A stretch of DNA of 34,343 nucleotides, taken from NCBI GenBank assembly GCA_905236235.1, contig CAJOPA010000110.1, forward strand, positions 1 through 34,343. The letters run 5' to 3'. This document shows, piece by piece, positions 1-29,792 of the stretch. The notes under the pieces are model-generated. The model was not told the origin of the DNA. It was given only the letters and a program-made list of their open reading frames with translations, and did not search any database. Position numbers and translations under genes: made by a program. The stretch comes from an uncultured Eubacterium sp. (GTDB lineage: Bacteria > Bacillota > Clostridia > Lachnospirales > Lachnospiraceae). Position 1 is the stretch's first letter; each line of letters opens with the position of its first letter.

Positions 1-84
1 GCAGGAGTGGCGGAATTGGCAGACGCGCAGGCTTCAGGTGCCTGTGGTAGCAATATCGTGTGGGTTCAAGTCCCATCTCCTGCA
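1..84 (+). tRNA. tRNA-Leu (anticodon CAG)
   Basis: Acceptor GCAGGAG (1-7) pairs with CTCCTGC (77-83); long variable arm; anticodon stem CAGGC/GCCTG around loop TTCAGGT; T-loop GGGTTCAAGTCCC; CCA not encoded. Confidence 0.95.
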
Positions 85-90
85 TAAAGG

Positions 91-122
91 AAAAGCCTTG
101 CACATGTGCAGGGCTTTTCTTT
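91..122 (+). terminator. Intrinsic terminator downstream of tRNA-Leu
   Basis: aaaagccttgcacatgtgcagggcttttctttt: about 14-bp self-complementary stem followed by T-rich run. Confidence 0.75.
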
Positions 123-134
123 TATGCAGGAGCT

Positions 135-220
135 CCTTGAACCCAGCGGGTTCAAGGTCTCCTCGCCCTGACGAGCTCGTCGGTCAGTTCGGGCTGAAAA
201 AGGTCCACCGGACCTTTTTC
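135..220. repeat. Cluster of three adjacent palindromes
   Basis: ccttgaaccc-agc-gggttcaagg (135-157), gacgagctcgtc (170-181), gaaaaaggtcc-acc-ggacctttttc (196-220). Confidence 0.8.
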
Positions 221-2934: not shown

Positions 2935-2984
2935 AAAAGGGATAGGATCACCGTAAGGTCATCTTTTGCCATAAGCAAAAAAAT

Positions 2985-3029
2985 CAGACCGTGTGAAGAG
3001 GGGTATCGCTTCACACGGTCTGTTTTTTT
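2985..3029. terminator. Strong (probably bidirectional) terminator between convergent genes
   Basis: cagaccgtgtgaag-aggggtatcg-cttcacacggtctg followed by ttttttt. Confidence 0.85.
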
Positions 3030-17721: not shown

Positions 17722-18079
17722 AAAAAACGTAAGTAGGATGAATGATCGCGGGCGCAAGTGCCGAAAGGCCGCGTCTGAGGAAAGTCCGGGCTTCACAGGG
17801 CAGGATGCCGGATAACGTCCGGTGGAGGCGACTCCAAGGATAGTGCAACAGAAATATACCGCCGTGTGATCACGGTAAGGGTGGAAGGGCAGTGTAAGAG
17901 ACTACCGCCCGGATGGTAACATCCGGGGCACATGTAAACCCCATTCGAAGCAAGACCGCACAGAAACATACGGTTGCCCGCCGGTTTCAGGTAGGTCGCT
18001 TAAGACCGTCGGTGACGACGGTATCAGATAGATGATCATTCTCGACATAACCCGGCTTACAGTCCTGCTTACGTTTTTT
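17722..18079 (+). ncRNA. rnpB: RNase P RNA (bacterial class A)
   Basis: Conserved gaggaaagtccgggcttcac, gaagggcagtgtaagagactaccg, cagaaacatacgg and ataacccggcttacag; P1-like complementarity aaaaaacgtaag / cttacgtttttt. Confidence 0.93.
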
Positions 18080-22007: not shown

Positions 22008-22136
22008 ATAGTGTTCTTCGGGGCAGGGTGAAATTCCCGACCGACGGTGATGCCTTTGGGCGAGTCCGTGAGCTTTTTTAAGCAGGATCCGGTGCGAATC
22101 CGGAACCGACAGTACAGTCTGGATGAGAGAAGAAGA
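22008..22136 (+). promoter_or_regulatory. FMN riboswitch
   Basis: ttcttcggggcagggtgaaattcccgaccgacggtgat...gagtccgtgag...ggatccggtgcgaatccggaaccgacagtacagtctggatgagagaagaag matches the FMN aptamer. Confidence 0.96.
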
Positions 22137-22171
22137 TGAAGCGACGTTTTCATGTAGTTTTGCTTGAATTG

Positions 22172-24241: not shown

Positions 24242-24435
24242 CCCGACAATCGCTCGGCATAAATCTTTTGCGGATGCGTAGGGCTTCTTCAAAGAAAAGA
24301 CGCGTTTCCCGTCGCATGGTCGAGGACTGTCTGAACGTAGTGAGTTCCGCAGACCATGCGAATTCAGAGGAAACGCGTCTTCTTTGTTAGAAGCCCCGCA
24401 TCAAGCAACCGGGTTTGCGCCGGGAGATCATCGGG
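24242..24435. repeat. Copy A of a dispersed long-hairpin element, between convergent ahcY and EamA genes
   Basis: 5' arm gatgcg..gggcttct..caaagaa..gacgcgtttcc pairs with 3' arm ggaaacgcgtctt.ctttgttagaagccc.cgcatc; inner stem gcatggtc/gaccatgc; primary-sequence similarity to 26981-27150. Confidence 0.85.
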
Positions 24436-24444
24436 AAAAGCAAA

Positions 24445-25778: not shown

Positions 25779-26699
25779 TCAGTCCTCCTTTGCGTACTCC
25801 AACAGTGTCAGGATCAGGGCCATGCGGACATAGACGCCGTATTGCGCCTGCTTGAAATACACGGCTCTCGGGTCATTGTCGATCTCCGTGGAAATCTCGT
25901 TGACACGGGGGAGAGGATGCAGTACCAGCATATCCTCCGGTGCTTTGGCCATCTTTGTTTTGTCAAGGACATAGTAATCCTTCATGCGGACGTAGTCTTC
26001 TTCGTTAAAGAAACGCTCTCTCTGTACGCGGGTCATGTATAAAAGATCCAGATCGTCCATGGCATCTTCCAGACGCTCCATCTCCGTATAGGGGATGTTC
26101 TGCGCATGCAAGACATCCTTCATGTAATCGGGAAGACGCAGTTCATCCGGGGAGATCAGCTTAAAGTTGACCCCGGGATAGCGGATCAGCGCATGGATCA
26201 GGGAATGTACCGTACGGCCAAACTTCAGATCGCCGCAAAGTCCGATGGTAAGATGATTAAGCCGTCCCTTTAAAGAACGGATGGTCAGAAGATCTGTGAG
26301 CGTTTGCGTGGGATGCTGGTGTCCGCCGTCGCCGGCATTGATCACGGGAATCTTTGCATGCTGGCTGGCCACAAGCGGAGCGCCCTCTTTGGGGTGGCGC
26401 ATGGCGCAGATGTCAGCGTAGCAGGAAAGGATGCGAATGGTATCGGAAACGCTCTCGCCCTTGGCCGCGGAACTGGAATCGGCGCTGGAAAATCCCAAAA
26501 CTTTGCCGCCGAGATTTAACATGGCGGATTCAAAGCTCAAACGGGTACGCGTGCTCGGTTCGTAAAACGCAACAGCCAGTTTCTTGCCTTCGCATTTATG
26601 TGCATATTGCTCCGGATGATTCTCGATATCATTGGCCAGATCCAGCAGTTTATCCAGCTCTTCTACCGAAAAATCCAGGGGACTCATTAAGTGTCGCAT
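25779..26699 (-). CDS. pyrB: Aspartate carbamoyltransferase catalytic subunit
   Basis: [55 protein letters not shown]. Confidence 0.98.
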
Positions 26700-26713
26700 A
26701 GGATCTCCTTTTT

Positions 26714-27416
26714 AAGTGATTGTATCCTAAAAATTATAGCATTCCCCCATGGAATTCACAAGCACGCCCCGTGATTTTTCACCCTTTTCTCTGCGAAAAC
26801 TCCCGCCCGGGCAGACCGCCATAAGGCGCCGGGCGCTTATTGGAAAACCATGGTTTCGACAAGCCGGCCTTAGAGGAGCTTTGGCAATAGTTCGAAATTT
26901 TGGTTTGCTAAAAGCGACGATTTTTTTTGCGAATAAACCTATCCGTGCTGATTAGAACATTTGCGCCCCGATGTTCGCCCTGCGCAAACCTTTTGCGGAT
27001 GCGTCGGGGTTCTTCAAAGAAACGGCACGTTTCCCGTCGCGCGGTCGAGGACTGTCTGAGCGAAGCGAGTTTCGCAGACCGCGCGAATTCGGAGGAAACG
27101 CGCCGTCTTTGTTAGAAGCCCAGCATCCGACAACCGAGTTTGCGCCGGGCGGACACCGGAACGCAAAAGTTCGAAGGTGCACGGACAGCTTATCTAAAAA
27201 AATCGTCTGTCTTTTGCAAACCGTAAAATTTCGACCAAATCTGCCAAATCACCCTCTAAGACCGCCTTGCCGGAATCATGTATTTTTAAAAAGCCCGGCG
27301 CCTTATGGCGGTCTGCCCGGGCGGGAGTTTTCGCAGGAGGGAAGCGTCGGATCATCATGGGGCGTGCCTGCAAATATCGTGGGGGAAATGCCTTGATTTG
27401 GAGGATGCAATCACTT
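26714..27416. repeat. Giant imperfect palindrome (about 700 bp) filling the pyrB-relA intergenic region; its centre is copy B of the dispersed hairpin element
   Basis: Perfect 44-bp inverted repeat 26791-26834 / 27293-27336; outer ends aagtgattgtatcct / aggatgcaatcactt; further collinear inverted blocks (ttcgaaatttt-ggtttgc / gcaaacc-gtaaaatttcga; inner 8-bp stem 27039-27046 / 27077-27084), all sharing a centre near 27064. Confidence 0.9.
26733..26761 (-). promoter_or_regulatory. pyrB promoter, inside the left palindrome arm
   Basis: Minus strand TTGTGA - 17 bp - TATAAT upstream of pyrB RBS AAGGAG. Confidence 0.7.
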
Positions 27417-27443
27417 GAATAGTAGGAGATTCTTTGGTAAAAT
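27415..27443 (+). promoter_or_regulatory. Candidate relA/spoT promoter abutting the outer end of the right palindrome arm
   Basis: TTGAAT - 17 bp - TAAAAT. Confidence 0.6.
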
Positions 27444-27479
27444 ATTATATTATTTTTCGTAGAAGAGGAGGTGAAATGC

Positions 27480-29792
27480 ATGGCAATGGACTATCCTGAA
27501 GTTTGGAAGGAATTGCAGGATGTTTCCTTAGAGACGCCGCAGGGTGTCACGGAGACCAGGGAATTTGAGGATCCGGAGACGCTTTACGGTGAGCTCGTGG
27601 ACCGGATCAAGCGGTACCATCCTTCGGCGGATACCACGCAGGTACGCAAAGCGTACGAGACTGCGGCGGCGGCGCATGAGGGCCAGGTGCGCAAGTCCGG
27701 AGAGCCATACATCATTCACCCCCTGTGCGTGGCCATTATTTTGGCGGACTTAGAGCTTGACAAGGAGACGATCATCGCGGGGATCCTTCACGATGTGGTG
27801 GAGGATACGGTGATGACGGAGGAGGAGATCGCAGAGCAGTTTGGTGAGGATGTGGCCCATCTGGTGGACGGCGTGACCAAGTTGGGGCAGATCGCCTATG
27901 ACGCGGACAAGGTCGAGGTGCAGGGAGAGAACCTGCGCAAGATGTTTTTGGCGATGGCCAAGGATATCCGCGTGATCATGATCAAGCTGGCGGACCGTCT
28001 GCACAATATGCGCACGCTCAAATACATGACCGAGGAAAAGCAAAAGGAAAAGGCAAGGGAGACCATGGAGATCTACTCCCCCATTGCGCAGCGCCTCGGC
28101 ATCTCCAAGTTAAAGATCGAACTCGACGACCTGTCCTTAAAATATCTGGAACCGCAGGCATACTATGATCTTGTGGACAAGATCATGATGCGTAAAAGCG
28201 TGCGGGAGGAGTATGTGGACCACCTGGTGGAGGAGGTAGGTGCCTACATCAAAGAGGCGCAGATCGAGGCCTCCATCGACGGCAGGATCAAGCACTTTTT
28301 CAGCATTTATCGTAAGATGGTCAACCAGGACAAGACCATTGACCAGATCTACGATCTTTTTGCCATCCGTATCATCGTGAAGGATGTGAAGGACTGCTAT
28401 GCGGCGCTTGGCGTGATCCATGAAAAATACAAGCCCATTCCCGGGCGGTTTAAGGATTATATCGCCATGCCCAAGCCCAATATGTATCAGTCGCTGCATA
28501 CCACGTTGATCGGTTCCAACGGGCAGCCTTTTGAAGTCCAGATCCGTACGGCGGAGATGCATCGTACGGCGGAGTACGGTATCGCGGCCCACTGGAAGTA
28601 CAAGGAGGCATCCGATGGCAAGACGGACAGTACGCCGGAGGCGGAGGAAGCGAAGCTTACGTGGCTCAGACAGATCCTGGAGTGGCAGCGGGACATGTCG
28701 GACAACCGGGAGTTTTTAAGCCTGCTTAAGAGTGATCTGGATCTTTTTTCAGACGAAGTCTTTTGCTTTAGCCCCCAGGGTGATGTGAAAAACCTGCCCA
28801 AAGGCGCCACGCCCATTGATTTTGCTTACTCCGTGCACAGCGCGGTCGGCAACAAAATGGTGGGAGCCAAGGCCAACGGCAAACTCGTTCCCATTGATTA
28901 CGTGATCAAAAACGGTGACCGGATCGAGATCCTCACCTCGCAAAATTCCAAGGGACCTAGCCGGGACTGGTTGGCCATCGTCAAGAGCACCCAGGCGAAA
29001 AACAAGATCAACCAGTGGTTCAAACAGGAATTTAAAGAAGAAAATATTGCGCACGGACGTGAGCTTTTGATCGCCAATGCCAAGGGCAAAGGCTTAGTGT
29101 TGTCCGACCTGATGAAGCCGGATTATCAAAAGGCGGTCCTTAAAAAATACGGATTCCGTGACTGGGATGCGCTTTTGGCCTCCGTAGGGCACGGCGCCAT
29201 CAAGGAAGGTCAGATCATTAACAAATTGCAGGATCTTTACGAAAAAGATCACCGCAAGGCCATTATCGAGGAGCAGATCCTGCAGAGCCTCGAGGATGGG
29301 ATCAAGCGCGAGGACGACAGGAAGGAAAAGGGCAAGAGCGGCATCGTTGTCAAGGGTGTGGATGATGTGGCAGTCCGTTTTTCCAAATGCTGTTCGCCGG
29401 TGCCCGGGGATGAGATCGTCGGTTTTGTAACGCGCGGCCGCGGGATCTCCATTCACAGAACGGATTGCGTCAACGTGATCAATATGCCGGAGATGGATCG
29501 TGCCAGACTGATCGACGCGGAGTGGCAGGAAGGTTTTGCCACCGGCGGATCCTATGTGGCGGACATCTGCGTTTATGCGCACAACAGAACAGGATTTTTG
29601 GCGGACGTGGTACGGATCTTTGCCGAAAAAGATATCGATATCACCAATGTTGCCTCGAAGGTTAGCAAGCAGAACATCGCGACCGTGGAGTTGAGCTTCC
29701 GCGTGATGAACCGCGAGGAACTGTCCAATCTGATCGAAAAGCTCAGACAGATCAACGGCGTGATCGATATCGAGCGTTCGACAGGCAGCTGA
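27480..29792 (+). CDS. relA: Bifunctional (p)ppGpp synthetase/hydrolase (RelA/SpoT homolog)
   Basis: HD domain GILHDVVEDTVMT; synthetase DLFAIRIIVKDVKDCYAALGVIHEKYKPIPGRFKDYIAMPKPNMYQSLHTT; TGS and C-terminal ACT; RBS agaggaggtg. Confidence 0.97.
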   Translation: MAMDYPEVWKELQDVSLETPQGVTETREFEDPETLYGELVDRIKRYHPSADTTQVRKAYETAAAAHEGQVRKSGEPYIIHPLCVAIILADLELDKETIIAGILHDVVEDTVMTEEEIAEQFGEDVAHLVDGVTKLGQIAYDADKVEVQGENLRKMFLAMAKDIRVIMIKLADRLHNMRTLKYMTEEKQKEKARETMEIYSPIAQRLGISKLKIELDDLSLKYLEPQAYYDLVDKIMMRKSVREEYVDHLVEEVGAYIKEAQIEASIDGRIKHFFSIYRKMVNQDKTIDQIYDLFAIRIIVKDVKDCYAALGVIHEKYKPIPGRFKDYIAMPKPNMYQSLHTTLIGSNGQPFEVQIRTAEMHRTAEYGIAAHWKYKEASDGKTDSTPEAEEAKLTWLRQILEWQRDMSDNREFLSLLKSDLDLFSDEVFCFSPQGDVKNLPKGATPIDFAYSVHSAVGNKMVGAKANGKLVPIDYVIKNGDRIEILTSQNSKGPSRDWLAIVKSTQAKNKINQWFKQEFKEENIAHGRELLIANAKGKGLVLSDLMKPDYQKAVLKKYGFRDWDALLASVGHGAIKEGQIINKLQDLYEKDHRKAIIEEQILQSLEDGIKREDDRKEKGKSGIVVKGVDDVAVRFSKCCSPVPGDEIVGFVTRGRGISIHRTDCVNVINMPEMDRARLIDAEWQEGFATGGSYVADICVYAHNRTGFLADVVRIFAEKDIDITNVASKVSKQNIATVELSFRVMNREELSNLIEKLRQINGVIDIERSTGS

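What the first reader, a model, noticed from the sequence alone, without database searches (positions are those of the whole stretch)
26714..27416. A ~700-bp giant imperfect palindrome fills the pyrB-relA intergenic region
Seen: the left half reads as the reverse complement of the right half over essentially the whole interval. There is a perfect 44-bp block (ctgcgaaaactcccgcccgggcagaccgccataaggcgccgggc at 26791-26834, complement at 27293-27336), matching outer ends, and several other collinear blocks, all around one centre near 27064. Neither flanking gene explains it, and the ORFs drawn across it look incidental. Inference: it could be a large fold-back/MITE-type element, a cruciform-forming or replication/recombination site, or the template for a very long double-stranded RNA hairpin (RNase III substrate). 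Long palindromes are generally unstable in bacteria, so retention of both arms suggests either recent origin or selection.
Basis: seen in the sequence. Interest (0 to 1): 0.78.

Follow-up and report, generated by a model that had tools for sequence, protein, structure and literature searches.

The report
Overgrown copy of dispersed hairpin repeat
The giant palindrome is real: it is the largest copy of a small hairpin-shaped DNA repeat scattered through this bacterium, it carries a tip motif also found in repeats of bacteria from at least six phyla, and its long arms look like inverted copies of neighbouring DNA made when replication switched template.

Summary
Confirmed: 26705-27425 is one imperfect palindrome (MFE -432 versus -238 for shuffles). 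It is not a one-off. A ~160-bp core (26984-27143) is a dispersed repeat with 7 full copies in this 1.6-Mb MAG, one more in this window (24259-24418), and none in six congeners. Copies covary as hairpins. The tip, GAGGACTGTYTGAGCG-NAG-CGAGTTCCGCA, occurs as dispersed hairpin repeats in genomes of at least six phyla (1 to ~24 copies each). A circularly permuted form exists. The tip was not found in the plasmid, phage, viral-contig or E. coli collections; no Rfam family matches; no Y1 transposase, reverse transcriptase or recurrent neighbour gene explains its spread. Arms outside the core are copy-specific: the window's distal arms match nothing else in the genome except each other. In another copy the arm is an inverted copy of the adjacent prfA gene's last codons. 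A 44-bp perfect block in ~74% arms looks like a recent conversion tract. Best reading: a REP/RPE-like non-autonomous hairpin element whose arms are perfected and extended by quasipalindrome template switching. The repeat family is well supported, the growth mechanism moderately, the mobiliser unknown. A specific RNA role for the 720-nt hairpin is not supported.

The parts
26705..27425 (.). whole imperfect palindrome, axis near 27064
26984..27143 (+). repeat core (covariance model R1), shared by 7 loci of the genome
27047..27062 (+). apical motif strand A, GAGGACTGTCTGAGCG
27066..27076 (+). apical motif strand B, CGAGTTTCGCA (consensus CGAGTTCCGCA), after the AAG loop
26705..26983 (.). left outer arm; distal ~190 bp match nothing else in the genome except the right arm; contains the pyrB promoter and ribosome-binding site
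27144..27425 (.). right outer arm, diverged inverted copy of the left outer arm including a decayed copy of the pyrB promoter/RBS region
26791..26834 (+). 44-bp perfect block, left copy
   Evidence: a run this long has P about 1.5e-4 at 74% background identity
27293..27336 (-). 44-bp perfect block, right copy
26658..26674 (-). pyrB codons matching the relA leader (27452-27467) near the palindrome axis; possible remnant of a longer arm
   Evidence: 16 of 17 columns plus one gap; 1 of 1328 control windows scores as high; suggestive only
25779..26699 (-). pyrB (aspartate carbamoyltransferase), flanking gene
27471..29792 (+). relA/spoT-type (p)ppGpp synthetase-hydrolase, flanking gene
26733..26761 (-). 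promoter-like site for pyrB (TTGTGA-17-TATAAT) inside the left arm
27415..27443 (+). promoter-like site for relA (TTGAAT-17-TAAAAT) at the right edge of the palindrome
24259..24418 (+). second copy of the repeat core, without long arms, between convergent S-adenosylhomocysteine hydrolase and EamA transporter genes

Best explanation
The palindrome is one copy, the largest, of a non-autonomous dispersed hairpin repeat. SHOWN: a ~160-bp hairpin core with a conserved apical internal-loop motif is present at 7 intergenic loci of this genome and covaries between its arms. The same motif tops hairpin repeats in genomes of at least six phyla, patchily distributed. Outside the shared region the arms are copy-specific, and one copy carries an inverted copy of its neighbour gene's end. 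INFERRED: the core spreads between chromosomal sites, probably through recognition of the folded motif by an enzyme not identified here. At each site the hairpin stalls or misguides replication; the nascent strand folds back or jumps to the opposite strand and copies the other arm and the flank beyond it before switching back. This restores pairing (compensatory changes, the 44-bp perfect tract) and lets the palindrome grow outward over neighbouring sequence, here the pyrB leader, to 720 bp. The arms then decay neutrally. The element is most likely selfish or neutral for the host; placement at 3' ends is the tolerated one.
For: Dispersed core. Covariation: 11 pairs and 19 cells changed on both sides, 0/500 shuffles; copy-specific pairing in a second genome, G135: own arm partner best in 13-15 of 16 copies, mean score 46.8 versus 23.5. 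Conserved tip in many phyla: 29 exact matches in 84,980 species, about 0.5 expected by my own arithmetic; 1-24 copies per genome with 0 in the reversed-pattern control. Permuted form. Patchiness: absent in six congeners; present in few of 397 genomes of the family. Copy-specific arms: scores 304, 189 and 70 versus a cross-copy maximum of 45. prfA case: inverted copy of AACGAAAGCGCCTG, 16 of 17 columns, while congener G003 shows that the ...ESA* gene end is native. Outer arms decay without strand bias, G-U:A-C 14:10. Perfect 44-bp tract P about 1.5e-4. Template switching is published as able to create and maintain hairpins (PMC8794818) and quasipalindrome mutations are documented in E. coli (PMC7202029).
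Against: No empty site, target duplication or mobilising enzyme was found, so mobility rests on dispersal and patchiness. Only 3 of 7 copies here have long arms, so growth could be rare, or long arms could be ancestral and lost elsewhere. The pyrB-codon extension is weak. prfA C-termini vary among congeners; only G003 shares ESA*. In Barnesiella and Nitrospira copies the arms show no copy-specific covariation. Conservation of the tip motif needs a separate selective cause that template switching does not supply.
Confidence: 0.62

Rival explanations
1. A functional structured RNA: the core (or whole hairpin) is transcribed and the conserved internal loop binds a protein or RNA; arms are kept paired by selection on the RNA.
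For: Covariation; a highly conserved asymmetric internal loop found in two circular permutations, as expected for a three-dimensional RNA motif; G-U:A-C 21:1 in inner stems of G135 copies.
Against: Counted by column the G-U/A-C test is inconclusive (5:1, 3:2, 0:4, 0:1); outer arms here are balanced (14:10); motif orientation relative to co-directional genes is about even (16:15); variable copy number, absence from congeners, no dedicated promoter seen; no Rfam match.
Confidence: 0.2
2. A fold-back/MITE-type transposon in which the whole 720-bp palindrome is the mobile unit, moved by a transposase in trans.
For: Dispersed copies in one genome, patchy distribution, no coding capacity.
Against: Only the middle 160-300 bp is shared; the outer arms match nothing else in the genome except each other; no target-site duplication seen, no neighbouring transposase.
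Confidence: 0.08
3. A REP-type sequence moved by a Y1 HUH nuclease (RAYT/TnpA-REP).
For: Intergenic, chromosomal, hairpin, many copies, avoidance of divergent promoter regions (21 convergent to 5 divergent).
Against: No Y1_Tnp gene in the window's own genome, nor in the Barnesiella and Nitrospira genomes with the most copies; no GTAG-type tag noted; much longer than the 20-40 bp of REPs.
Confidence: 0.06
4. Assembly artefact: a chimeric inverted join at a repeat in the MAG.
For: Contigs end at or near other copies (L010, L011, L003); contig L024 of another MAG turns back on itself at such a hairpin; pyrB and relA are on different contigs in all six congeners.
Against: Arms differ by ~25% including indels, not near-identical; the core recurs at six other loci at 80-86% identity, too diverged for short-read joining; other intact palindromes (510 and ~300 bp) lie within contigs.
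Confidence: 0.04

Closest known systems
Repetitive extragenic palindromes (REPs) and their RAYT nucleases
   Same: short chromosomal hairpin repeats, non-coding, intergenic, many copies, patchy among species
   Different: core is ~160 bp with a conserved apical internal loop rather than a 20-40 bp hairpin with a GTAG/CGTC tag; no Y1 transposase in several high-copy genomes
Rickettsia palindromic elements (RPE)
   Same: palindromic element that also lands in frame inside protein genes (recJ twice, a pseudouridine synthase)
   Different: spread over at least six phyla; a single conserved tip motif; mostly intergenic; sequence relation to RPEs not tested
Quasipalindromes corrected by template switching (E. 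coli; RNA gene stems, PMC8794818)
   Same: imperfect inverted repeats whose arms are homogenised, giving perfect tracts and multi-base compensatory changes
   Different: here the hairpin is a dispersed repeat, and arms appear to have grown hundreds of bp into unique flanks
Bacterial MITEs / fold-back elements
   Same: non-autonomous, dispersed, hairpin-forming
   Different: no terminal inverted repeats of a known IS, no target duplication found, variable arm length per copy

Membership tests
REP elements (RAYT-associated) | 20-40 bp hairpin with a GTAG/GTGG or CGTC tag at its foot | tested here: not met
   shared core is ~160 bp; the conserved part is at the tip, with no such tag at the foot (definitions in PMC3733652, PMC6006769)
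REP elements (RAYT-associated) | cognate Y1 HUH transposase (PF01797) in the genome | tested here: not met
   8 of 23 motif genomes match; none in the window's genome, Barnesiella G071 or Nitrospira G062; own genome is 87% complete
MITE / fold-back transposon | fixed unit with terminal inverted repeats shared by all copies | tested here: not met
   copies share only the core; arms beyond it are copy-specific
MITE / fold-back transposon | target-site duplication or precise empty site | tested here: inconclusive
   congeners are not syntenic at pyrB-relA; in the congener of G135 only one gene fragment aligned
Rickettsia palindromic elements | palindromic repeat inserted in frame in protein genes | tested here: met
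   recJ of L033 and L038, pseudouridine synthase of L041; not in the window's own genome
Rickettsia palindromic elements | sequence relatedness to RPE families | not tested
   no RPE reference sequences were compared
Known structured RNA (Rfam 15) | match to a covariance model | tested here: not met
   no credible match to any copy, of either permutation
Retroelement-mobilised RNA (retron, group II, DGR) | reverse transcriptase in the genome | tested here: not met
   RVT_1 absent from own, G062, G071, G135, G210
Template-switch quasipalindrome | perfect tract within an imperfect palindrome; arms homogenised per locus | tested here: met
   44-bp tract, P about 1.5e-4; copy-specific arms and pairing
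Template-switch quasipalindrome | arm sequence copied from the flank in inverted orientation, shown against an ancestral state | tested here: inconclusive
   prfA case supported by one congener; pyrB case suggestive

The most novel reading that the evidence does not exclude
The tip (strands GAGGACTGTYTGAGCG and CGAGTTCCGCA, in two circular permutations) is an uncharted folded nucleic-acid recognition motif that defines a superfamily of dispersed hairpin elements reaching across bacterial phyla on chromosomes, moved by an unidentified enzyme, and its hairpins seed the growth of giant palindromes by copying neighbouring genes in reverse.
Probability: 0.4. Interest if true: 0.82.

Novelty: new variant of a known kind. 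Interest (0 to 1): 0.68.

Why it matters
Long palindromes are thought to be quickly lost in bacteria; this family suggests they can be seeded, repaired and enlarged at several chromosomal sites, giving natural material to test template switching as a palindrome builder. The conserved tip, found in at least six phyla with no known enzyme or Rfam family, points to an unidentified mobilising or binding protein. The two circular permutations tell experimenters which part to test.

Tried and rejected
RAYT/Y1 transposase as mobiliser. Reverse transcriptase. Recurrent neighbour gene: protein clustering around 60+ copies found none that recurs across unrelated groups beyond a few three-group coincidences; copies flanking genes in G315 enclose ordinary or unmatched genes. 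Rfam families; I suspected the 'skipping-rope' RNA from memory, but no Rfam match supports it. Plasmids, phages, viral contigs, E. coli: no match. Literature by sequence string: nothing relevant. Empty site at pyrB-relA: congeners not syntenic, upstream sequences unrelated. Strand asymmetry of G-U versus A-C as an RNA test: balanced or conflicting between families, inconclusive. Contig L024, whose palindrome includes 78 codons of folA, was first taken as proof of arm growth, then set aside: the inverted copy differs mainly at synonymous sites, some shared with a sister species, which fits a strain-chimeric contig end.

Full report
OBSERVATION. The palindrome is real. The repeat finder gives collinear inverted blocks, including the 44-bp perfect one. 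A gapped self-comparison gives 26705-27425 at 75% over 750 columns. The single-strand fold is -432.5 kcal/mol against -238 +/- 9 for shuffles. Outside the 44-bp block the arms are 74% identical. The flanks are pyrB (minus strand) and a relA/spoT gene (plus strand); the left arm carries the pyrB promoter-like site and the right edge the relA one.

IT IS A REPEAT. Searching the window's own MAG with the palindrome returned the centre at many other places, one of them in the same window at 24242-24444. A covariance model of the core finds exactly seven full copies and none in six congeners. The copies I annotated lie between unrelated genes, mostly housekeeping. Between copies the core is about 80-86% identical by BLASTN, and its stems covary: 11 pairs changed on both sides, 97% of cells paired, 0 of 500 shuffles as good. 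Two other copies are also large palindromes, 510 and about 300 bp.

THE TIP IS WIDESPREAD. An exact pattern of the tip, GTYTGANCNNAGNNAGTTYCGCAGAC, matched 29 loci among 84,980 species genomes, where my own arithmetic expects about 0.5. Most are the tips of long hairpins with quite different stems, in Bacteroidota, Nitrospirota, Campylobacterota, Patescibacteria, Pseudomonadota and Lachnospiraceae. Within those genomes a looser pattern finds 1 to 24 copies, with zero for the reversed control. In Barnesiella, Nitrospira and Iodobacter nearly every copy is followed by a second A/T-rich hairpin. In the window's own family, 17 of 397 genomes match a short pattern of strand A, several of them chance hits in coding sequence, but a few hold many real copies (17 and 18 in G210 and G135). 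The tip was not found in the plasmid, phage, viral-contig or E. coli collections. It matches no Rfam family.

TWO PERMUTATIONS. In G210, G247 and congener G001 the two conserved strands occur in the opposite order, CGAGTTCCGCA - cap - GAGGACTGTTTGAGCG, inside a different outer stem. The same internal loop is thus closed from either side. That is what one expects if the folded loop itself is what is recognised. Whether it is recognised as RNA or single-stranded DNA is open.

THE ARMS ARE LOCAL. Beyond the core, scoring each copy's left flank against its own right flank and against those of other copies gives 304 (window), 189 (L003) and 70 (L007), with a cross-copy maximum of 45; four copies have no significant extension. 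The distal ~190-230 bp of each window arm match nothing else in the genome except the opposite arm. In L007 the arm runs through the stop codon and last codons of prfA, and the other arm carries the inverted copy, 16 of 17 columns, ending at the next gene's stop codon. A congener has the same ...ESA* protein end, so the prfA side is probably the native one. In the window the left arm includes the pyrB promoter and ribosome-binding site. The right arm has a decayed copy of it in reverse, and a further 17-column match to pyrB codons lies near the axis (1 of 1328 control windows as good). That last point is suggestive only.

MECHANISM. Replication template switching between the arms of imperfect hairpins is published as able to create and repair stems (PMC8794818; E. 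coli quasipalindromes, PMC7202029). It accounts together for the perfect 44-bp tract in 74% arms, for compensatory multi-base changes, for arm lengths from ~170 to 720 bp, and for inverted copies of neighbouring genes. In this window's outer arms the two classes of transition mismatch are balanced (14 G-U to 10 A-C type), as for neutral decay. Tests for RNA-strand selection gave mixed answers between families. How the core moves is unknown: no Y1 transposase, reverse transcriptase or recurrent neighbour gene fits.

PLACEMENT. Among classifiable copies, 21 lie between convergent genes and 5 between divergent ones, and the motif has no preferred orientation between co-directional genes. The window copy, between two divergent genes, is an exception. 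In three Patescibacteria-type genomes the element sits in frame inside recJ (twice, different positions) and a pseudouridine synthase, as Rickettsia palindromic elements do (established knowledge; not compared by sequence here).

LIMITS. The window genome is a fragmented 87%-complete MAG. Contigs end at or near several copies, and one foreign contig is probably chimeric there. No close strain was available for empty-site tests. Only open-access papers could be searched, so the motif may be described elsewhere under a name I did not find.

Noticed in passing
L033:2255-4105, L038:714-2480: The element is inserted in frame in recJ of two different CPR-type genomes, at different positions and in opposite orientations; the motif reads EDCLSEASSAD in the first. 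A striking coincidence for a single-strand DNA exonuclease gene.
   Followed up: partly
L041:3905-4891: In-frame insertion of the element in a pseudouridine synthase gene of a Saccharibacteria MAG (..EDCLSAASSADN..).
   Followed up: partly
L156, downstream of prfA in congener G001: A hairpin with the permuted motif lies 3' of prfA, the same gene that borders copy L007 in the window's genome, in the opposite orientation. Coincidence or hot spot.
   Followed up: partly
L024:4365-5091 (contig end): The contig turns back on itself at the hairpin and carries a 97% inverted copy of the first 78 codons of folA, with mostly synonymous differences: probable strain chimera, or a true inverted duplication.
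   Followed up: yes
L010 and L011, contig edges in G000: Contigs of the MAG end within or next to copies of the repeat; palindromes may be a general cause of contig breaks and of missing copies.
   Followed up: no
L096, L115, L131 (Barnesiella, Nitrospira, Iodobacter): A second hairpin of the form CTTTTG..CAAAAG or TTCTT..AAGAA follows the main hairpin in all three groups but is not seen in the window's family.
   Followed up: no
window 61-145 and 2978-3029: Two further short palindromes (84% over 88 and 81% over 52 columns), the first next to the tRNA gene at 1-84.
   Followed up: no
window 17730-18075 and 22010-22138: Ordinary RNase P RNA (class A) and FMN riboswitch.
   Followed up: no
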